Assembly: GCF_002252445.1 (NCBI RefSeq)
Contig: NZ_NNRJ01000018.1
Coordinates: 1 to 64,000 of the forward strand
Direction: 5' to 3'
DNA from: Brucella thiophenivorans
GTDB taxonomy: Bacteria > Pseudomonadota > Alphaproteobacteria > Rhizobiales > Rhizobiaceae
Length of the DNA: 64,000 bases
Below are positions 5,845 to 15,013 of the stretch, in pieces (position 1 is the first letter of the stretch; the number at the start of each line of letters is the position of its first letter). Under the pieces are notes generated by a model that ran no database searches, had not been told where the DNA came from, and saw nothing but the letters and a program-made list of their open reading frames with translations. Both the position numbers and the translations under genes were made by a program.

Positions 5845-6891
5845 TCAGAAATCGTACTGATCCATATTATCCTTGGTTACACCGACCCAGCCTGCACCAT
5901 AAAGCAGGTTTGGCTTGGCAGCATCAGGAGCGAGCAGGCTTTCATAGCCTGGCAGACCGAGATTAAGACCGGCTTTGATCTGCTCGTTCTTCTTTTCGAG
6001 TGCTGCAACAGCCAGCATGTTCATGGCATAGCCCGCAACTGCTGGGTCCCAGAACTGGATATACTGAATATCGTCGTTCTTGATGTATTCGCCAGCAACC
6101 GAAACAAGACCGGTGCCTGCAAAGAAGACTTTACCCTTCAGGCCGCCTTCAGCGATCAGACGACCAGCACCAGCCGATGTCGGCATTGGAGCACCCAGAA
6201 TTCCGGTGATGTCCGGATAGGCAGTCATTGCTTCCTTTAGCTTGTTATAATCCGTGTTCGCATCGTCATAGGTTTCGAGGCGCTCGGTTACGAGTTCCAT
6301 TTCCGGGAAATTGGCCTTCTGATATTCAACAGCGCCATCAATCCATTCCATCTGTGATTTGGAGGTCAGGCTGCCGACGGTCGCGACATATTTGCCCTTG
6401 CCGCCCATCGCCTTGCCGAGTTCCTTCATCAGGTTCGCGCCATAAGCCTTGTTATCAAAAGCTTCGATGTTGAAATCGACATTCTGGATGTTCGATGCTT
6501 CATGGCTGACAACAACAATGCCGCGATCACGCGCTTTTTTTAGTACCGGTTCCACGGCTTCCACCGAGAAAGGAACGATAGCGATAGCGTCTACGCCCTG
6601 TGCAATCAGATTTTCAACAATCTGCACCTGAGCGGCGGCATCTGCCTGACTTGGGCCAACCATCCAGACATCGTTGCCGGTATCGGTTTTGAACTGTTCA
6701 ACACCGTCACGCATACGGTCGAACCAGGCAATGCCGTCGACTTTCACAACCGTCGCAATTGTATATTTTTTGTCGTCTGTGGTCGTGATCAGCTCTTTGT
6801 TGATCTTGGACGTATCGACGACGCCTTCAGCAAAAGCATGAGGCATGGCCACAGACATGGCGATTGCCATGGACGCGATAAATTTTTTCAC
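5845..6891 (-). CDS. Periplasmic sugar-binding protein (LsrB/RhaS-like)
   Basis: This is a 348-residue periplasmic binding protein of ABC importers (Peripla_BP_4 type I fold). A signal peptide ends near AMPHAFAEG (about residue 22). The mature part shows the family landmarks VVKVDGIAWFDRMRDGVEQF, QIVENLIAQGVDAIAIVP and GAPMPTSAGAGRLI. Its general pattern resembles LsrB and RhaS proteins, so a pentose or deoxy sugar ligand is reasonable and fits the deo context. I chose the GTG start at 6889-6891 because a strong GGAGG lies 7 bases upstream; the longer frame to 7032 has no signal-peptide character. It is the first gene of the operon, transcribed from the intergenic region facing deoR. Confidence 0.88.
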   Translation of the reverse strand: MKKFIASMAIAMSVAMPHAFAEGVVDTSKINKELITTTDDKKYTIATVVKVDGIAWFDRMRDGVEQFKTDTGNDVWMVGPSQADAAAQVQIVENLIAQGVDAIAIVPFSVEAVEPVLKKARDRGIVVVSHEASNIQNVDFNIEAFDNKAYGANLMKELGKAMGGKGKYVATVGSLTSKSQMEWIDGAVEYQKANFPEMELVTERLETYDDANTDYNKLKEAMTAYPDITGILGAPMPTSAGAGRLIAEGGLKGKVFFAGTGLVSVAGEYIKNDDIQYIQFWDPAVAGYAMNMLAVAALEKKNEQIKAGLNLGLPGYESLLAPDAAKPNLLYGAGWVGVTKDNMDQYDF

Positions 6892-7222
6892 CGGTATTTC
6901 CTCCCTGGAAACGAATAGCGCCCCGTCCAAACGTCTAATCGTCAGACGAGATTGGTGACTACTGATCTTGACGCCGTGCTTTGCAGTTTGCTGCTGACAC
7001 GATCGTCTCCTCCTTTTGGCTATCGGCTGCATGGATGTCGCCGCTCGCCAAAATTAATATTGTCAAATCCTCCCGATAATGCGAATTATAATGTTATAAT
7101 CCGATCATTATGTTTGGATCGTTTCATATTTTTGTTTGACCTGTCAAGTATGCTGCATCACAATTGCACCAAATGATGAAGCGGGTTAAACGAAACTGAA
7201 CCGCACGGGAATTGGGGAATCA
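6892..7222. promoter_or_regulatory. Divergent control region of deo-type operon and its repressor
   Basis: This 331-base region has no convincing gene. It holds a perfect dyad of 7-base arms with a 2-base spacer, ATTATAA at 7085-7091 and TTATAAT at 7094-7100, which also contains a TATAAT hexamer on each strand. That makes it a good candidate operator overlapping divergent promoters. A separate promoter-like pair for the repressor gene is TTGACC (7136-7141) with CACAAT (7159-7164), 17 bases apart. The assignment to the adjacent DeoR protein is inference from position. Confidence 0.55.
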
Positions 7223-7933
7223 GTGAGCAGGATCAGTCGAAAAGATGAACGCATTGCTGAAATCGCTGCTCTTGTTGAAGAGATAGGGGTGTTACGTCTT
7301 CGGGACGCAGCCACAAGGTTGGGTGTTTCCGAGATGACGATCCGGCGTGATATTGGCAGCGATGCCGGGACACTCAATTGTTTGGGTGGTTACATTATTC
7401 CTGTGCAAGAAGGTGCAAATGGCAGCGATTATGTCTTTGATCTTGAAAAAGACTGTCATGCCAACGCCAAGATTCAAGCCTGCACCGCGGCTGCCGCATT
7501 AATCGAACCGCATGACACAATCTTCATAGATTGTGGCACGACAACACCGCATCTGGCGCATCTCATTCCACAGAACCAGCACTTAACAGTCGTCTGCTAT
7601 TCGTTGAATGTTGCCGAGATTCTTTCGCGCCGAACCGATGTTCGGCTGATCGTGCTTGGTGGCGTCTATCACCCGGAAGCCGCATCGTTTTCCAGCGATG
7701 AGGGGATTGAGGTGCTCAAGCGCGTCAATATCAACAAGGCTTTTTTATCCGCCGGTGGCGTTGATAATGAGCATGGCGTGACTTGTTCCCATTTCCACGA
7801 GGTTCCGGTCAAGCAGATGGCCATGCAGCGTGCTTTGCAGAAATATCTTGTTGTTGATGAGAGCAAATTCGGCAAGGTCCGTGCTGCACGTTTTGCCGGA
7901 GTAGCTGACTTTAATTCAATTGTTTCAAGCTGA
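7223..7933 (+). CDS. deoR: DeoR-family transcriptional repressor of the deo-type operon
   Basis: This is a 236-residue DeoR-family regulator. The N-terminal winged helix carries LRDAATRLGVSEMTIRRDIG (about 26-45), the classic DeoR recognition helix. The C-terminal DeoRC sugar-phosphate sensor domain carries DCGTTTPHLA, VCYSLNVAEIL and LVVDESKFGK. It starts at GTG 7223 after a weak GGGGAA. It is transcribed divergently from the binding-protein gene, so it probably represses that operon and is relieved by a phosphorylated sugar such as deoxyribose 5-phosphate. The length and domain order are normal for the family. The effector is inferred. Confidence 0.85.
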   Translation: MSRISRKDERIAEIAALVEEIGVLRLRDAATRLGVSEMTIRRDIGSDAGTLNCLGGYIIPVQEGANGSDYVFDLEKDCHANAKIQACTAAAALIEPHDTIFIDCGTTTPHLAHLIPQNQHLTVVCYSLNVAEILSRRTDVRLIVLGGVYHPEAASFSSDEGIEVLKRVNINKAFLSAGGVDNEHGVTCSHFHEVPVKQMAMQRALQKYLVVDESKFGKVRAARFAGVADFNSIVSS

Positions 7934-8000
7934 TCTTAAGAATCGTTGAAGTCTTTTTGCCTGCACATTTTTTGTGTTGAAAAAGGATTGAAATAATATA

Positions 8001-8017
8001 TTGAGTGATTCACTCAA
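8001..8017 (+). promoter_or_regulatory. IRO-type palindrome (candidate RirA operator)
   Basis: TTGAGTGA-T-TCACTCAA is a perfect 17-base palindrome with 8-base arms. It contains TGA-N9-TCA (8002-8016), the consensus of the iron-responsive operator bound by RirA in Rhizobiales. It lies about 63 bases before the TonB-receptor start and next to an AT-rich AATAATATAT stretch. Iron-repressed control of the downstream operon is the natural reading; binding by RirA is inferred from the consensus only. Confidence 0.65.
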
Positions 8018-8079
8018 CTTTAGCCAGCAAGTTCCCATGAGCAAGCCAGCGATTTCGCAATGCTTATCTCGGGGACATT

Positions 8080-10440
8080 ATGCTGAGAATTCCGTCTACC
8101 CAAAATTCCGTCAATCGTCGTTGGCTGAACATGTTTTCAGCCTCTGTTGTGGTCTTTGCAGCTTCGCACGCTCACGCTCAAACTGTTACTGAAAAAGTAA
8201 AACAGGACGCGGTGCCACAAAGCCTGAGCACAGCGGTCGAGACCGAAAGTCCTGAAACGATCAGACTTGAAACCATCACGCTTTCTGCCGAACGCGCTGC
8301 CAAGAATCTGCTTGATGTTCCCATGTCAATCAGCGTGATTGATCGCGATACGCTCGAACGCCATCAGGTGCGCGATATTCAGGATATGGTGCGCTATGAA
8401 CCCGGCGTGAGCGTTGATCGCCAGACATCGCTGACAAATCCGTTCGGACAGCTTAACAGCTTTAACATACGTGGTGTGGGTGGAAACCGTGTGCAAATTC
8501 TCGTCGATGGTGCACGTGTTCAGGAGCGCATCACCGATGGTAGCCGTGACTTTGTTGATCCTTTCAACATGAAATCTGTCGAAATTACCCGCGGCCCTAA
8601 CTCTGTGCTTTGGGGTGCGGACGCTTTAGGCGGCGTTGTGTTTTTTAGAACAATCGATCCGGACGATTTGCTGGATGGTACAAAGCCGTGGGCGGTTGAA
8701 ACGAAGTTCAGCTATGACAGCTTTGACAAGTCGTTCCGTCAACAGATTACGGGTGCTGCAGAAGCGGGTGACTTTAAAGTTCTTGGTAGTTTTGGACACA
8801 TAAGCGCATCTGAACCGGATATGCGGAAAGCCCGCGCTGATGGCGGGATATGGGGTTGTCCGCGTGAAGCAATCTGGCCATGTAACAAAGCGTCTCCAAT
8901 GGATACGGATGCCTATAACGGCCTTATGAAGCTTCAGTGGAATCCATCGGCGGATCACGAATTCAAGCTGACGGGCGAGTGGTTCGAGCGTAACACGGAT
9001 GTGGATCAGAAATATGATTCCGGCGCTGCCAATCCGCTATATCTGAACATGCCCAGCTTCTATTATGAAAATGAGAGCTGGGATCGTTCGCTTAAAATGC
9101 AGCGCGCGCGCTTCGCACTCGATCATCGCTGGACAGTCGGTGCGTCATGGCTGGATGAGGTGAAGTGGAACGTTTCCTATTCGCCTCAGAAGCGCGATAC
9201 GACAAGCAATCAGCTTCGCAATTATTCGCGTCTTGCAGTGCCGCGCCGCGAACAGCGTATTCAGATCCGCAATTATAGCGAAGATTTTTTGCAAACGGAT
9301 GTTCAGCTCACATCTTCCTTTGATCTTGGTCAAACCAGCCACAAACTTATTTATGGCTTCGCGGGCGACATCACCAAGAGCAATTATGATGGTGAGAATA
9401 TCACCACAAATCTCAATACGGGTGTTACCACCGTTACGCCGAGACAAGGTTTCAACTTTCCAAAAGTCGATACAGTGCGGGCCGATTTCTATGTTCAGGA
9501 TGAAATCAAGATTCTGGATGACCGTCTGACGCTGACACCGGGCTTACGTCTCGCTACCTATTCCATTGATCCCACCAAGGATGGTGATTACGTCCCTCTC
9601 GATGGATTTGAACCTGAAAAGATGGATGAGACGCGTCTGATCAAGCGTCTTGGCGCGATCTATAAACTGGATAATACCTATTCGCTATTCGGCTCCTATG
9701 GCGAAGGTTTCAAAATGCCGACTGCACAACAGCTCTTCGTATCTTCCACCTCAATCGGTGCGACGAGCATGGTCGAAGTCATTCCTAACCCGAACCTCAA
9801 GCCGGAATTTGTGCGCAGCTACGAAGCTGGTTTACGCGGCGAGTATGATCGGGGCTATTTTAGCGCTTCTGCATTCTATTCGGATTACCGAGACTTCATT
9901 CGGAGCCTGCAACAGGTTCCGGGGACTGCTGATAAATATACGTCCGATAATGTCGAAAGCGTAAAAGTATGGGGCATCGAGTTTGGCGGCGAATATGAGG
10001 TCTATAATAACCTCTTCGCAAATGCTGCCCTGTCTTACATGCGCGGTGATCAGCGTGTAGATGCGGGTTCTGAAAAAACACCATTTGATGGCGCCGTTCC
10101 GCTGACGACTGTTCTGGGATTACGTTACATCATTCCAGACTGGAATCTTGAAACGGAATTCGTCGGTACATTTGCGTCGGGTGTGAAGCGTCGTGCCGAT
10201 GAGAATGCGTTCAAACCTTCGAACTATTCGGTGTTCGATGCCTATGCAAAGTGGTCGCCCACCAAGCATATCGACGTTAATTTTGGTGTCGAGAATATCT
10301 TCGACAAGCGCTATTTCCCGAATACGCTGACCGGTTACGCCAACACACCGGAAACGTCATCTGTCGCCAATGTCAATCCATTGGAAATGCAGATTGCGCC
10401 GGGGCGTACCTTCAAAATTGGCGCAACAATGCGTTTCTGA
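8080..10440 (+). CDS. TonB-dependent outer-membrane receptor, hemoglobin/heme receptor-like
   Basis: This is a 786-residue outer-membrane receptor. A signal peptide ends at AHA-Q (33/34), followed by a TonB-box-like ETITLSA (64-70). The plug domain follows (DIQDMVRYEPGVSV, FNIRGVGGNRVQILVDGARV, VEITRGPNSVLWGADALGG), then a 22-strand-type barrel ending in a C-terminal Phe. The plug and the NPNLKPEFVRSYEAGLRGE block resemble the hemoglobin/transferrin/lactoferrin receptor family. The usual FRAP motif reads FKMP, and no His lies between it and NPNL, so heme as ligand is uncertain; a ferric siderophore is possible. ATG 8080 has GGGGAC upstream. An IRO-type palindrome precedes it, and an ABC transporter and a ChaN-family gene follow. 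Confidence 0.88.
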   Translation: MLRIPSTQNSVNRRWLNMFSASVVVFAASHAHAQTVTEKVKQDAVPQSLSTAVETESPETIRLETITLSAERAAKNLLDVPMSISVIDRDTLERHQVRDIQDMVRYEPGVSVDRQTSLTNPFGQLNSFNIRGVGGNRVQILVDGARVQERITDGSRDFVDPFNMKSVEITRGPNSVLWGADALGGVVFFRTIDPDDLLDGTKPWAVETKFSYDSFDKSFRQQITGAAEAGDFKVLGSFGHISASEPDMRKARADGGIWGCPREAIWPCNKASPMDTDAYNGLMKLQWNPSADHEFKLTGEWFERNTDVDQKYDSGAANPLYLNMPSFYYENESWDRSLKMQRARFALDHRWTVGASWLDEVKWNVSYSPQKRDTTSNQLRNYSRLAVPRREQRIQIRNYSEDFLQTDVQLTSSFDLGQTSHKLIYGFAGDITKSNYDGENITTNLNTGVTTVTPRQGFNFPKVDTVRADFYVQDEIKILDDRLTLTPGLRLATYSIDPTKDGDYVPLDGFEPEKMDETRLIKRLGAIYKLDNTYSLFGSYGEGFKMPTAQQLFVSSTSIGATSMVEVIPNPNLKPEFVRSYEAGLRGEYDRGYFSASAFYSDYRDFIRSLQQVPGTADKYTSDNVESVKVWGIEFGGEYEVYNNLFANAALSYMRGDQRVDAGSEKTPFDGAVPLTTVLGLRYIIPDWNLETEFVGTFASGVKRRADENAFKPSNYSVFDAYAKWSPTKHIDVNFGVENIFDKRYFPNTLTGYANTPETSSVANVNPLEMQIAPGRTFKIGATMRF

Positions 10441-10460
10441 TCGCCATTGAAGGCCTCTTT

Positions 10461-10494
10461 GCCGGAGCGGCTTCACAGCTGCTCCGGCTTTCTC
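10461..10494 (+). terminator. Stem-loop between TonB receptor and ABC transporter genes
   Basis: GCCGGAGC (10461-10468) pairs perfectly with GCTCCGGC (10481-10488) and is followed by TTTCTC. The T-run is weak, so this may be an attenuator that lowers expression of the downstream transporter rather than a full stop. Confidence 0.5.
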
Positions 10495-10513
10495 ACATTG
10501 GTACTGGTTGATT

Positions 10514-12244
10514 ATGCTTATTGTCTTCAGACAGTTTTCGCAGTTGTTCAAATATTGCAATTCAGGTTCTGGAAAGGTTCTGAACTGGTCGCTACTCGTC
10601 GTAATCTTCGCTCTGCAACTGGTTGGTATTTATACGGGTCTGTGGCTCATCAAATGGACGGCAGATTTCTATAATGCGCTCGAACAGCGCAATGTTACTG
10701 TTGCGATAAATCAGATCGGTATCTTTGGCCTGATTGTTCTTGTGAACACCTGTCTAACTCTGACGGGCAATTATCTGGAGGGCACACTTAGAATTCGCTG
10801 GCGCCAGAAGCTCACCGAGACGGCTATCGCGTTCTGGATGTCCAATAAGGCTTACTGGAATTTTGCCATCGGCCGCGACGGGCAGGTGCCGGATAATCCC
10901 GATCAGCGTATCGCTGAGGATTGCGAACTCTTTGTCAAGCATACGCTTAAAGAAGGATTGGGCCTGATAACGAATATCATAGCCCTATTTTCTTACGTTG
11001 CGGTTCTCTGGTCACTTTCGACCTACGCTCTTAATTTCAATCTATTGGGGATCGATTTCGTCATTCCAAGATATATGCTCTGGGCAGCATTTATCTATGT
11101 GTTCATCTCTTCATTTATGACGCACTTCTTCGGGCGGCGCCTGAAAGCAACCTTCGTTGAGCAGCAAAAGAAAGAAGCGGATTTTCGATTTGCAATGGCG
11201 CATATTCGTCAGCACGCTGGCGATATTGCCGTAATGAACGGGGAAGAGTACGAGAAAAAGATATTGGCAGACAAGTTTTCTGCTGTCCGCGAGAACTGGT
11301 ATCGACTGGTTTTGCGACAGGTTCAGCTTGATTTGTTCATATTTCCCTATCGCCACAGTATTTTTCGAATTCCGACTTTTCTTGGCCTGCCGGGATATTT
11401 TGCAGGCACATTGACGTTCGGCGGATTAATGCAACTGGGGCAGGCCTTCTCGCAAGTATCGACCAATCTGTCATGGTTCATTTTCAATTATAAAACCCTG
11501 GCTGAACTGGTATCGGCGATTTCGCGCCTGTCAGGTTTCATCAACGCCATCCACCGCGTTGACGTTGCAGGCAATATGGTGACAGCGCAGCCTTCTCATT
11601 CTTCGCTGCATCTAATGGATGTTTCGGTGAAGACACCTGATGCGCGGGATTTGCTCAACATCTCAAATCTTGAAATAGCAAAGGGCCAAACGGTGTGGCT
11701 GCGCGGTCGCTCGGGGCTTGGCAAAACCACTCTGCTTCGGCTGATTGCAGGTGCATGGAAGTTTGCAAGCGGGACGCTCCATCGTCCAGATGCCACGATG
11801 CTTGTGCTTTCGCAAAAGCCCTATATGCCGAATGCTGGCCTATATGATGCCGTAGCTTATCCGCTTTCGGCAGAGAAGTTCAGTACGACAGAAATTACGC
11901 AAGCACTCACAAAAGTTAGATTATCGAAGCTGTTGCAGAGTGACGCTTCCCTTAGCCATATCGCGCCGGGAACGCTTTCTGGTGGTGAGATGCAACGCCT
12001 CGCCCTTGCGCGGTCAATCCTGATCAAGCCCGACTGGCTGTTTCTTGATGAAGCGACGAGCGCACTGGACAAGGCTTCGGAGGCTGAGTTGCTGGAGTTG
12101 TTGCGTCGTGAACTTCCCGATTCCACCATCGTAATTCTGGCTCATCGAGAGCCCGGAAATCTTTCAATCGACAGCGTCATCGATCTGGAAAGTTTTTGCA
12201 GCACGCAAAAGCCGTCAGACACAGCTGTTCTCCAAACTGCATGA
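10514..12244 (+). CDS. BacA/SbmA-like ABC transporter with fused ATPase (YddA / Rv1819c type)
   Basis: This is a 576-residue inner-membrane ABC transporter. The N-terminal half has about six membrane segments of the SbmA/BacA type (WTADFYNALEQRN, GTLRIRWRQKLTE, DNPDQRIAEDCELF and NLSWFIFNY are family blocks). The C-terminal domain is a nucleotide-binding domain with Walker A GRSGLGKTT, signature LSGGEMQRLALARS and Walker B WLFLDEATSAL. Relatives import hydrophilic molecules such as cobalamin, peptides and bleomycin. Here it follows a TonB receptor, so it may carry the same ligand across the inner membrane. Start is uncertain: ATG 10514 or TTG 10508, both with poor ribosome sites. It ends in an ATGA overlap with a spurious ATG, and the next gene follows at once. 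Confidence 0.85.
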   Translation: MLIVFRQFSQLFKYCNSGSGKVLNWSLLVVIFALQLVGIYTGLWLIKWTADFYNALEQRNVTVAINQIGIFGLIVLVNTCLTLTGNYLEGTLRIRWRQKLTETAIAFWMSNKAYWNFAIGRDGQVPDNPDQRIAEDCELFVKHTLKEGLGLITNIIALFSYVAVLWSLSTYALNFNLLGIDFVIPRYMLWAAFIYVFISSFMTHFFGRRLKATFVEQQKKEADFRFAMAHIRQHAGDIAVMNGEEYEKKILADKFSAVRENWYRLVLRQVQLDLFIFPYRHSIFRIPTFLGLPGYFAGTLTFGGLMQLGQAFSQVSTNLSWFIFNYKTLAELVSAISRLSGFINAIHRVDVAGNMVTAQPSHSSLHLMDVSVKTPDARDLLNISNLEIAKGQTVWLRGRSGLGKTTLLRLIAGAWKFASGTLHRPDATMLVLSQKPYMPNAGLYDAVAYPLSAEKFSTTEITQALTKVRLSKLLQSDASLSHIAPGTLSGGEMQRLALARSILIKPDWLFLDEATSALDKASEAELLELLRRELPDSTIVILAHREPGNLSIDSVIDLESFCSTQKPSDTAVLQTA

Positions 12245-12252
12245 GGAAAACT

Positions 12253-12966
12253 ATGAGCGAACAACCAATCCGTGCGAAAATTCTGGCCGCTGCGGCTGAT
12301 GTTCTTAAGACGCTGCCTTTGATGGGAAAGCTGATGATCAATACCAAAAGCGGAGGTGCGACCCACGAACGTATCGGCGTTGTGGAACAGGTCGAGGTTC
12401 GCGACGGCTGGATTTATTTTACCGGTGATGAACATCATTCCCGGATCGAATTGACAGCGATCGCATCGCTGATTGCGGATCGCAGCAGCGTCATGCAGGA
12501 GAAGGTTTATCCGCGTATCGATCTTCTTGCAGCGGATGAAACTGTGATTGGCAGTGTGATCGGCTTCGAAGGCGCAGAACCTTTCGATAAAGCGCTTCAT
12601 GGCTTTGAATTCACGGCACTTGAACCAAAGGAAAAAGAGCAGGGTGCAACGGAAACACTGGAAGTTGGCGAGGATGATCCCGGACTAGCACCATTTGCGA
12701 AAGCGCAGCGCAACAATGCGGACGTTCGTATTGCTATTGATCTGCCATCGTTCAAGCAGGAATGGAGAGGCCAGATGCCCGAACCGCGTCTATCACGGGG
12801 TTTTATCAACGTGATGAAGCCTGACTTTCATCTGCATCTCAAAGCAGGCAACGTGACGTCATGGCGTGCTGATGAGCAAGGAGAAGATCTCGTGTTCTAT
12901 GCGCTTAACAAAGAAAATGAAGAAACGGGCCTGATCGTGTCGGGTAAAAAAGAAGCCTTCCAATGA
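12253..12966 (+). CDS. Unknown cytosolic protein of the iron/heme-type operon
   Basis: This is a 237-residue soluble protein with no signal peptide or membrane segment. I do not recognise it firmly. The first half (VEQVEVRDGWIYFTGDEHHS, SVMQEKVYPRIDLLAADE, SVIGFEGAEPFDKAL) loosely recalls the HutX/ChuX heme-carrier pattern of a strand-rich fold ending in a phe-rich helix, but the match is weak. The middle is acidic and Glu-rich (about 123-145). The start at ATG 12253 has GAGGAAAAC upstream. It overlaps the following ChaN-family gene by ATGA, so the two are translationally coupled. A cytosolic binding or handling role for the imported ligand is a guess from context. Confidence 0.7.
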   Translation: MSEQPIRAKILAAAADVLKTLPLMGKLMINTKSGGATHERIGVVEQVEVRDGWIYFTGDEHHSRIELTAIASLIADRSSVMQEKVYPRIDLLAADETVIGSVIGFEGAEPFDKALHGFEFTALEPKEKEQGATETLEVGEDDPGLAPFAKAQRNNADVRIAIDLPSFKQEWRGQMPEPRLSRGFINVMKPDFHLHLKAGNVTSWRADEQGEDLVFYALNKENEETGLIVSGKKEAFQ

Positions 12967-13805
12967 GTACTATGCAGTCAAAACAAAGTGCCGGGCACTG
13001 GGTTGATGCGTTATCTGGTGAGGAGCGCCCACACCGTCTGGTAATGCAGGACATGGCGCAAAAGCAGGTTGTTCTGCTTGGCGAAACGCATGATCGTTAT
13101 GATATTCACCGTTGGCAGGGCAATATATGCGCGTCACTTCTCGCACTGCGGGACGATCTTGCGGTTGGCTTTGAGATGTTTCCCCGTAGGCTGCAACCTG
13201 TACTCGATGAGTGGGTCGACGGAAAGCTTGATGCGGACACATTTCTGGAGCGCGTTGAGTGGGGGAAGGTGTGGGGTTTTGCTGCCGATCTTTATTGGCC
13301 ACTTTTCCATTTCTGCCGTGAGTTTCAGGTCAAGATGCTGGCCTTAAACTGTCGTCGTGATCTTGTGACGCGTGTCGGCAGGGAAGGTTGGGACGCAATT
13401 CCAGATGCAGAGCGGGATGGGTTAACGCCTGCAAGGCCTGCAAGCATGGCCCATCGCGAACATCTTCTGCGCCTTACCAATGGCGGCCCGCCATTTATGC
13501 AGGGAAAGACTGCCGACGCACCGGAGTTTGATCGCTTTGTTCGTGCGCAACAAACTTGGGACCGTGCCTTTGCGTGTAACATAGCGTCTTATCTGGCTGA
13601 AAAACCGGACGCGCTGGTCGTTGGCATCGTAGGACGAGGACATATGGAATATGGCTTCGGCACACCGGATCAGCTTGATGATCTCGGCGTCAAACAGGTT
13701 GGCATTCTTCTGACAGAAGATATGGGCGATGCAAAGGCTGCGTCAACGCTTGAGAATGCGTCGCCAATCGCTGATGCGGTTTTCAATTTAAAGCCCTGTG
13801 TGTAG
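12963..13805 (+). CDS. ChaN-family (DUF399) iron/heme-associated protein
   Basis: This is a 280-residue protein of the ChaN/DUF399 family. Family landmarks are VVLLGETHDRYDIHRWQ (about 36-52), VGFEMFPRRLQPVLDEW, and VGIVGRGHMEYGFG near residue 220. Characterised ChaN is an iron-regulated lipoprotein that binds heme. This copy has no signal peptide or lipobox (it starts MSTMQSKQSAGHWVD), so it should be cytoplasmic, which is unusual. It overlaps the preceding gene by ATGA and ends the operon. A role in heme or iron handling after uptake is inferred from the family and the IRO-type palindrome upstream of the operon. Confidence 0.82.
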   Translation: MSTMQSKQSAGHWVDALSGEERPHRLVMQDMAQKQVVLLGETHDRYDIHRWQGNICASLLALRDDLAVGFEMFPRRLQPVLDEWVDGKLDADTFLERVEWGKVWGFAADLYWPLFHFCREFQVKMLALNCRRDLVTRVGREGWDAIPDAERDGLTPARPASMAHREHLLRLTNGGPPFMQGKTADAPEFDRFVRAQQTWDRAFACNIASYLAEKPDALVVGIVGRGHMEYGFGTPDQLDDLGVKQVGILLTEDMGDAKAASTLENASPIADAVFNLKPCV

Positions 13806-13818
13806 TTCACATTGACGA

Positions 13819-14559
13819 TCATGTCTCCGTTATATTGCTTAACGGAGACCCCATGCTTCCAGAGAAGCCGCGATAGCGTTGGTGACTGCGTGTGAGATGG
13901 GCTTGCATTGCATCGCGGGCTTGCCCGGCATGGCCCGCGCTGATGGCTTCACAGATCGCGCGATGTTCGATCACCGTATTCTGTATATATTTGGGTGTAA
14001 TCAGCGCGGGATTGAGATTGCGTGAGAATGCAGGTTGCGGCAGCATCTTCATGCTCATTACGCTGAAAAACTCTATGAATGCCAAATTGTTAGTCGCTTC
14101 GGCGATGCATCGATGGAAGACAAAATCCAGTTCATCCAGCGCTGCCTCGTCTTCCTGCGAGGCTTCAAATTGTTTCAGAGCTTCCCACATTTTAGCTTCC
14201 TGCGCCCACGACCTTCGCTGGGCAGCCAAGCCTGCCGCATGTACCTCGAAGGCCATTCGCAATTCCAGCAGGTCCATGAACGGTAGCGACAAAAGACCCA
14301 GCGGTTCCAGAATTGTGGAGGCGTCACCGCTTGTCGCGTTGGCCTTGTCCTGATCGCGGATGAAGATACCCACTCCATGCCGGGCCTCGAGCAGCCCATC
14401 CGAACGCAGAGCGGCGATGGCTTCGCGGATGACCGTACGACTGACACCAAGCTTGTCACCCAACTCCGCAAGAGTGGGGAGCTTATCTCCATTTTGGAGT
14501 GTGCCATCGCTGATCAGTGACTTCAGATTGTCGATCGTTCGTGAAGTAAGTGTCTTCAA
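13819..14559 (-). CDS. GntR-family regulator, FadR subfamily (FCD domain)
   Basis: This regulator is about 246 residues long. The N-terminal winged helix has NGDKLPTLAELGDKLGVSRT and VIREAIAALRSDGLLEARHG. The C-terminal all-helical FCD domain carries the metal-ligand pattern (DFVFHRCIAEATNN, EHRAICEAI, AHLTRSHQRYRGF). I prefer the TTG at 14557-14559, with GGTGG 7 bases upstream; a longer GTG start at 14628 would place a TATAAT hexamer inside the coding region. It is divergent from the RidA/ABC/HyuAB operon. Identical-type palindromes lie before its own promoter (14649-14661) and before that operon (14936-14948), so autoregulation and operon control are likely. The effector is unknown, probably a carboxylate or amino acid derivative. 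Confidence 0.85.
   Translation of the reverse strand: MKTLTSRTIDNLKSLISDGTLQNGDKLPTLAELGDKLGVSRTVIREAIAALRSDGLLEARHGVGIFIRDQDKANATSGDASTILEPLGLLSLPFMDLLELRMAFEVHAAGLAAQRRSWAQEAKMWEALKQFEASQEDEAALDELDFVFHRCIAEATNNLAFIEFFSVMSMKMLPQPAFSRNLNPALITPKYIQNTVIEHRAICEAISAGHAGQARDAMQAHLTRSHQRYRGFSGSMGSPLSNITET
13823..13849. terminator. Convergent-gene stem-loop
   Basis: GTCTCCGTTA (13823-13832) pairs perfectly with TAACGGAGAC (13840-13849). It lies between the converging ChaN-family gene and the gntR gene, overlapping the last codons of gntR. No clear T-run follows on either strand, so its efficiency as a terminator is doubtful. Confidence 0.45.
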
Positions 14560-15013
14560 TGAAAATCCACCCCGCCAAATTTGATCTTCGCTCTTAGAGC
14601 TTTGATACGCTGTCGGAATATTATACACAAGGTAGTATCATTAATCTAGTGATATTATCACTTGTCTAATTTATTTCCTTTTTGGTTAAAATTCATCTTC
14701 TGTGTTGACTGATTTTAAATGGCATTTTGACGATCAGGCAGGGGATTCAAAAAAATTTCGATCACAAAAAATTACACGTGGAAGATGGATTTTTGATCGA
14801 TTATGGCAATAAACATATGATAAATAATAATTATATCCAATATAGTAGTAAGATTATGGTGTTGTATGACGTCTAATAATCATTCTTGACAAGAGGTATT
14901 ATTTCCGCGAATTTAACGTCATAACAAAAAGCCAAGTGATAATATCACATCATTTTTCTGTCACATAACAGTTGCTGTAAAATGAGAGTGCGAAAAAACA
15001 AAAGAGGGGAAAC
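14560..15013. promoter_or_regulatory. Divergent AT-rich control region with two matching operators
   Basis: This 454-base region is strongly AT-rich and has no gene. It contains GTGATA-T-TATCAC at 14649-14661 and GTGATA-A-TATCAC at 14936-14948. The two are the same palindrome differing only at the central base, and each is flanked by A on the left. A TATAAT hexamer for the leftward gntR promoter is at complement 14620-14625, right beside the first palindrome. The second palindrome lies 66 bases before the ridA start. A TTGACA at 14886-14891 has no good -10 partner. The paired operators suggest that the GntR protein represses both directions. Confidence 0.65.

What the first reader, a model, noticed from the sequence alone, without database searches (positions are those of the whole stretch)
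8001..13805. Iron-type operon linking a TonB receptor to a BacA/SbmA-like ABC transporter and a ChaN protein
The operon has a perfect TGA-N9-TCA palindrome in front and lacks the usual periplasmic binding protein and FecCD-type permease. The only inner-membrane transporter is a BacA-like ABC protein of the type that imports cobalamin and other hydrophilic molecules. This may be an alternative uptake route for heme, a siderophore or a metallopeptide. Palindrome and gene order are seen; the family roles are established; the linked pathway is inference.
Basis: partly seen in the sequence, partly recalled or inferred. Interest (0 to 1): 0.7.

Follow-up and report, generated by a model that had tools for sequence, protein, structure and literature searches.

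The report
Heme-type uptake operon, BacA-like importer
A co-inherited set of up to four bacterial genes looks like an iron- and heme-controlled route for bringing heme, or something built like it, into the cell through an unusual one-piece importer in place of the standard heme pump.

Summary
The operon is real: heme-family TonB receptor (8080-10440), BacA/YddA-type ABC transporter (10508-12244), miniature HemS-type carrier (12253-12966), ChaN-family protein without export signal (12963-13805); no binding protein or FecCD permease. In 150 genomes of the order, the dedicated ABC clade occurs in 8; all 8 adjoin the same receptor type, 7 also the mini-HemS. The palindrome is one version of a TGA-N9-TCA box present in 35 of 40 leaders of this gene order (shuffles 1.3), but in only 5 of 35 of the others. 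GCCAGC repeats like published HmuP-responsive elements follow it; the genome encodes RirA and HmuP. Most likely a second heme (or heme-derived) uptake route beside a classical hmu cluster. That the ABC protein carries heme is inference. Against plain heme: the usual axial-ligand positions are missing in receptor and carrier. I found no description of it in an open-access library. New variant of a known kind.

The parts
8001..8017 (.). Palindrome TTGAGTGA-T-TCACTCAA holding a TGA-N9-TCA (RirA-type, IRO) box at 8002-8016
   Evidence: TGA and TCA kept in 9 of 9 stretches while the middle changes; box in 35 of 40 leaders of this gene order against 1.3 in shuffles
8022..8050 (+). Two AGCCAGC repeats resembling HmuP-responsive elements (HPRE) in the receptor leader
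   Evidence: published HPRE of chuR read in passages of PMC9131926; HmuP gene in the genome
8024..8086 (+). Possible leader stem that pairs the first repeat with the start-codon region of the receptor
   Evidence: (z -2.0); weak: 1 of 21 pairs with a change on both sides, and the outermost pair is broken in the window
8080..10440 (+). TonB-dependent receptor of the heme/hemoglobin family, F[K/R]MP subtype
   Evidence: Over cut-off for TIGR01785 and TIGR01786; best solved relative PhuR 8the
10508..12244 (+). BacA-like ABC transporter, membrane part and ATPase in one chain; in-frame ATG at 10514 is a likelier start than TTG 10508
   Evidence: PF06472, PF05992, PF00005; 6tqe best; 34% identical to YddA over 522 residues
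12253..12966 (+). Miniature HemS-type protein (237 aa)
12963..13805 (+). ChaN-family protein (280 aa) without signal peptide or lipobox

Best explanation
A second, dedicated uptake operon for heme or a heme-derived tetrapyrrole. Under iron shortage RirA leaves the TGA-N9-TCA box, and HmuP acts on the HPRE-like leader to allow receptor synthesis (both inferred from motifs and from the presence of the regulators). The TonB receptor brings the ligand into the periplasm. The BacA-like ABC protein, presumably a homodimer and without a binding protein in the operon, moves it across the inner membrane. The mini-HemS receives it in the cytosol, and the ChaN-like protein stores or processes it there. 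Shown: gene content, co-inheritance, families and predicted folds, conserved regulatory sequences. Inferred: cargo, import direction, regulation, cellular place and order of the steps.
For: Receptor over the NCBIfam heme cut-offs, PhuR best in PDB. Mini-HemS fold; ChaN fold. RirA-type box 35 of 40 and GCCAGC 26 of 40 leaders of this gene order against 1.3 and 3.2 in shuffles; RirA and HmuP in the genome; the classical receptor of the same genome has both kinds of element before it. Four genes together in 61 of 79 loci; ABC clade beside this receptor type in 8 of 8 sampled genomes and one clade in the tree.
Against: No usual heme axial ligands: plug position Ser/Asn/Thr/Gly and never His in 77 rows, barrel position Phe in 45 and Tyr in 32 of 77; the segment with the HemS His196 equivalent is a gap in the carrier. 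In the other gene orders the box is in 5 of 35 leaders, no more than some shuffles, and GCCAGC in 10 of 35. 39 of 47 carriers also have a close HmuU relative, so a second heme permease is not needed there. No solved relative of the ABC protein is a heme importer as far as I know.
Confidence: 0.6

Rival explanations
1. The cargo is a heme-bearing peptide or hemoprotein fragment: the BacA-like transporter imports the conjugate and the cytosolic ChaN-like protein helps to break it up.
For: BacA/SbmA-type transporters take peptides (recalled; SbmA abstract in the listing). ChaN-like members keep E41, H43, E71 and H227 in 64 of 64 rows; Ere esterases of the same fold use E47, H50, E78, H289 (passages of PMC7979712). 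Missing free-heme ligands in receptor and carrier.
Against: No protease or peptidase family was recognised in the operon. The corresponding residues were not superposed, and C. jejuni ChaN, reported to bind heme, aligns with Glu, His, Glu and His at these places too.
Confidence: 0.18
2. A ferric siderophore or metallopeptide route that merely belongs to the iron regulon.
For: RirA-type box; SbmA-like transporters take peptides (recalled); an HPRE also stands before a siderophore receptor gene, vbuA, in C. violaceum (passages).
Against: Receptor scores over the heme cut-offs and just under the siderophore one (TIGR01783 220.9, cut-off 223.5); a HemS-fold and a ChaN-fold partner.
Confidence: 0.1
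3. The ABC protein is an exporter (of heme, porphyrin or a drug-like compound) placed beside a heme receptor for protection.
For: E. coli YddA, 34% identical, was studied as a putative drug exporter (PMC9728188, title and abstract start in the listing). 39 of 47 carriers have another close HmuU relative for import.
Against: Box and leader predict expression under iron need, not heme excess. 8 of 47 carriers have no HmuU relative at 50% identity or more, yet keep the receptor-ABC pair.
Confidence: 0.07
4. Cobalamin uptake, as proposed for Rv1819c.
For: Best solved relative is 6tqe, which I recall as the cobalamin transporter Rv1819c.
Against: Receptor far below the BtuB-type cut-off (118.8, cut-off 599.7); no Rfam match such as a cobalamin riboswitch at 7900-8300; HemS- and ChaN-fold partners.
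Confidence: 0.05

Closest known systems
Fus (FusABCD) and PqqL-YddB-YddA protease-associated import systems
   Same: TonB receptor and fused FusD/YddA-type ABC transporter in one operon, gene order varying between species, linked to iron in print (passages of PMC5095587 and PMC6793856); ABC protein 34% identical to YddA.
   Different: No M16 protease or FusB-type gene among the four; receptor not related to YddB at BLASTP significance (best E 0.19) and far below the PqqU cut-off; HemS-type and ChaN-type partners instead.
Classical Hmu/Phu/Chu heme uptake (receptor, HmuS, HmuTUV)
   Same: Heme-family receptor, HemS-type cytosolic protein, RirA and HmuP type control.
   Different: No binding protein, FecCD permease or separate ATPase; the carrier is 237 aa and lacks the axial-His segment; the classical set lies elsewhere in the genome.
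Rv1819c/BacA-like ABC importers
   Same: SbmA/BacA-like membrane part fused to an ATPase.
   Different: A separate clade tied to a heme-type receptor; Rv1819c is reported to import cobalamin (title and abstract of PMC3603451 in listings; the link to 6tqe is recalled).
ChaN of Campylobacter jejuni
   Different: 2g5g is named a putative lipoprotein; here 0 of 63 tested have a hydrophobic leader or lipobox.

Membership tests
Fus/PqqL protease-associated import system | FusD/YddA-type fused ABC transporter | tested here: met
   34% identity to YddA over 522 residues, E 4e-97
Fus/PqqL protease-associated import system | Periplasmic M16 protease in the cluster | tested here: not met
   None among the seven proteins scanned at 5845-14628; no conserved fifth gene of 110 aa or more in the 79 loci apart from a generic ABC ATPase family
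Fus/PqqL protease-associated import system | FusA/PqqU-type receptor | tested here: not met
   PqqU model 60.8 bits, cut-off 1200; BLASTP with YddB best E 0.19
BacA-like ABC transporters | SbmA/BacA-type membrane domain fused to an ATPase domain | tested here: met
   PF05992 90.6 and PF06472 140 bits plus PF00005 69.6 bits; 6tqe 262.5 bits
BacA-like ABC transporters | Import of hydrophilic molecules | not testable with these tools
   Needs a transport assay
Heme TonB receptors (TIGR01785/TIGR01786) | Score over the curated cut-off | tested here: met
   360.8 (cut-off 316.85) and 376.3 (cut-off 323.75) bits
Heme TonB receptors (TIGR01785/TIGR01786) | Axial heme ligands of PhuR/ShuA type (recalled) | tested here: not met
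   Window has Ser155 and Phe553 at these positions; the classical receptor of the same genome also lacks the plug His but has the Tyr
HemS/HmuS/PhuS carriers | Two-repeat HemS fold | tested here: met
HemS/HmuS/PhuS carriers | Axial histidine (HemS His196; role recalled) and about 345 residues | tested here: not met
   HmuS His that aligns to HemS 196 faces a gap; 237 residues
ChaN family | PF04187 domain and ChaN fold | tested here: met
ChaN family | Exported lipoprotein, as in C. jejuni | tested here: not met
   0 of 63 with hydrophobic leader or lipobox by a simple script
ChaN family | Cofacial heme binding | not testable with these tools
   Needs protein
RirA regulon | Conserved TGA-N9-TCA box before the operon, RirA in the genome | tested here: met
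   RirA 287.9 bits, cut-off 193
RirA regulon | Iron- and RirA-dependent expression | not testable with these tools
   Needs expression data
HmuP/HPRE regulon | HPRE repeats in the receptor leader, HmuP in the genome | tested here: met
   Two AGCCAGC repeats at 8022-8050; HemP/HmuP 64.5 bits, cut-off 25; HPRE read
Classical HmuTUV-type uptake | Binding protein and FecCD permease in the operon | tested here: not met

The most novel reading that the evidence does not exclude
A clade of BacA/YddA-type ABC transporters is a dedicated, binding-protein-free inner-membrane importer of heme or a heme-derived compound. It works with an F[K/R]MP-type receptor, a miniature HemS and a cytosolic ChaN that bind or process the cargo differently from the classical His-ligated route, and in some Hyphomicrobiales it is the only inner-membrane heme route.
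Probability: 0.45. Interest if true: 0.78.

Novelty: new variant of a known kind. Interest (0 to 1): 0.62.

Why it matters
Heme uptake in Gram-negatives is described as ending with a binding protein and an ABC permease-ATPase set, besides peptide permeases of the Dpp/Opp type (passages of PMC11442138). A co-inherited cassette without a binding protein and with a BacA-like half-transporter would add a new kind of inner-membrane heme importer. It would also give this transporter group, whose natural cargo is in good part unclear, a testable one, and place a small HemS and ChaN in the cytosol as its partners. The conserved RirA- and HmuP-type elements make the prediction easy to test.

Tried and rejected
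Rejected or left out: (1) a TetR/GntR/DeoR-type operator reading of the palindrome, because only TGA and TCA are kept; the neighbouring regulators (DeoR type 7223-7933, GntR/FCD type 13819-14628) were not tested as binders. (2) Cobalamin control: no Rfam match with E up to 1 at 7900-8300. (3) A conserved fifth gene: among frames of 110 aa or more within 6 kb, the only family found in more than 9 loci (44) is a generic ABC ATPase. (4) Other copies of the leader pattern in this genome: seven places with up to 3 mismatches, the window exact; the two with 2 mismatches (L128, L129) lie by unrelated genes; the four with 3 mismatches were not looked at. (5) An Irr-type half motif in the other gene orders: 5 of 35 leaders against 0.7 in shuffles, too weak. 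(6) The leader stem: z -2.0 with 6 of 200 shuffles folding as well; 1 of 21 pairs changed on both sides in 9 sequences. (7) Promoter scan: 4 sites, shuffles 6.1.

Limits of the counts: many loci are close relatives, so they are not independent. In one search two receptors (L037, L051) were dropped for lack of a start, starts were chosen by a ribosome-site rule, and 60 shuffles were used. In the ABC tree L095 (cut short) and four of ten paralogs (L014, L016, L019, L021; stop in the cut stretch) were dropped. One search tested 63 of 64 ChaN rows and 70 of 80 mini-HemS rows. For one search, 53 handles were named and 52 searched; one search covered 47 of these 52.

Full report
What is there. The window lies in a genome of the genus Brucella in the broad sense that includes former Ochrobactrum: the contig of same-genus genome G034 has the length of NZ_NNRL01000151.1, Brucella grignonensis, and near named proteins come from Ochrobactrum sp. 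BH3 and B. gallinifaecis. The species of the window was not established. At 8080-13805 four genes follow each other on the + strand: a TonB receptor, a fused ABC transporter, a HemS-type protein and a ChaN-family protein. The last two overlap by 4 bases, and 8 bases separate the ABC stop from the HemS-type ATG at 12253.

The receptor passes the NCBIfam cut-offs for heme/hemoglobin receptors, and its best solved relative is PhuR. It belongs to a subtype with F[K/R]MP where PhuR has FRTP and ShuA FRAP: in the 77 aligned rows position 545 is Lys in 74 and Arg in 3, 546 is Met in 76, 547 is Pro in 77. The place of the PhuR plug histidine is Ser, Asn, Thr or once Gly in 76 rows (one gap); that of the barrel tyrosine is Phe in 45 and Tyr in 32. 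Which PhuR and ShuA residues bind heme is recalled. The genome's classical receptor, also over the heme cut-offs, likewise lacks the plug histidine but has the tyrosine, so the missing histidine alone does not exclude heme.

The ABC protein matches 6tqe best; that this entry is Rv1819c is recalled. It is 34% identical to E. coli YddA over 522 residues. In a tree with YddA and nine other non-operon paralogs, the 74 operon copies used (window included) and the operon copy of genome G054 form one clade, local support 0.978, with no paralog inside.

Co-inheritance. A scan of named genomes with the mini-HemS profile found 114 places that encode a relative; the best 80 were kept, giving 79 loci, mostly Hyphomicrobiales with a few Rhodobacterales. 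All four genes on one strand: 60 of 79, in three orders (37 receptor-ABC-HemS-ChaN, 20 receptor-HemS-ChaN-ABC, 3 HemS-ChaN-receptor-ABC). All four but divergent: 1. Receptor, ABC and HemS without ChaN: 13. Fewer: 5; these five (L067, L072, L079, L093, L094) are cut by contig ends.

Because that scan was seeded with the mini-HemS, I made a second test in 150 genomes drawn evenly from the order. The ABC profile gives 8 genomes at 754-883 bits and then drops to 543 and below. The mini-HemS profile gives 9 genomes: 7 at 253 bits or more, each within 1 kb of that ABC gene, and two at 154-167 bits without it (of these two G178 was read and is lone; G209 was not read). ChaN at 418 bits or more occurs in 5 genomes, all among the 8; in three of them it is unlinked. 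Two operon genomes (G180, G200) have no ChaN match, one (G228) a distant one beside the ABC gene. Against a strict link, two genomes without the ABC clade have ChaN relatives too: G116 (213 bits, in two pieces) and G127 (76 bits). All 8 ABC genes adjoin a receptor of the F[K/R]MP type (seven fetched, and the window). G228 has receptor, ABC and ChaN but no mini-HemS. The receptor-ABC pair is thus the core.

Within the genus, 8 of 34 other genomes searched have a full ABC ortholog at 66% identity or more, and one more, G013, only a C-terminal piece. Its locus holds a ChaN, a mini-HemS in two pieces and that ABC piece.

Regulation. The perfect palindrome is in 2 of 9 comparable upstream stretches, but TGA and TCA are kept in 9 of 9 while the bases between them change. 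Among leaders of loci with the ABC gene before the mini-HemS, the box occurs in 35 of 40 (shuffle mean 1.3, maximum 4); in the other orders in 5 of 35 (mean 1.4, maximum 4), little more than chance. GCCAGC occurs in 26 of 40 (3.2) and 10 of 35 (1.7), twice or more in 17 and 8 (0.2 and 0.1). This repeat is in the HmuP-responsive element quoted for chuR of C. violaceum (passages of PMC9131926; Amarelle 2019 was seen only as a reference there and in PMC11442138, its abstract recalled). The genome encodes HmuP and RirA, and a TGA-N9-TCA and a CAGCCAGCG stretch stand before the classical receptor. That RirA binds TGA-N9-TCA is recalled. In the genus the leader can fold so that the ribosome site and AUG are paired, which is thinly supported.

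Relation to the classical route. This genome has an HmuS-T-U-V cluster with its own receptor elsewhere, so the operon is an added route here. Of 52 carriers searched 29 have a full HmuS. Of 47 searched 39 have an HmuU relative at 53% identity or more, 4 have only 44-48% relatives and 4 none at E 1e-60. In these 8 the operon's ABC may be the only inner-membrane heme route; some are drafts or MAGs, and general peptide permeases, not searched, could also serve.

How it most likely works. Heme or a heme-derived compound enters through receptor and ABC protein and is handed to mini-HemS and ChaN; 0.6 overall. That the ABC protein itself carries heme inward is the least supported step. The contrary signs are the missing ligands, the weak box record in the other gene orders, the frequent presence of HmuTUV beside it, and the study of YddA as a putative exporter (listing). 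They leave a modified tetrapyrrole or a heme peptide open.

Known or new. Receptor plus FusD/YddA-type ABC transporter in an operon is known from the Fus and PqqL systems (passages of PMC5095587 and PMC6793856). Here the protease is absent, the receptor is of the PhuR type, and heme-type proteins take its place, so it is not a member of that family though it may work like one. Searches of the open-access library (listings and some passages seen) showed no description of this operon; subscription papers were not covered. I rate it a new variant of a known kind.

Noticed in passing
L031 (G013:C1:293000-308000): Decayed copy in a congener: ChaN present, mini-HemS in two pieces, only the C-terminal part of the ABC gene, no receptor match.
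   Followed up: partly
L037 5791-8180 and L028 5323-7712: Receptor gene in two overlapping frames in the B. pseudogrignonensis record; real break or sequencing error not decided, left as it is.
   Followed up: no
L135 (G000:C57:1500-9000): A short HemS-domain (HutX-like) gene beside a radical-SAM gene in two overlapping frames and a TonB receptor start; looks like a third, perhaps decayed, heme locus (the HutW/HutX names are recalled).
   Followed up: partly
L042: Contig titled Bacillus subtilis SK6B4 carries the operon in a form very close to Pseudochrobactrum (L041, L043); probably a mislabelled or mixed assembly.
   Followed up: no
L141, L142, L143 (G144, G054, G211): In three operon-bearing genomes of one genus the ChaN gene of the same kind lies far from the operon.
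   Followed up: partly
window 8022-8110: The first HPRE-like repeat can pair with the start-codon region of the receptor; a candidate way for HmuP to act.
   Followed up: partly
L139 (G228:C17:802000-811811): Receptor-ABC pair with a distant ChaN and no mini-HemS, showing that the pair is the core.
   Followed up: partly
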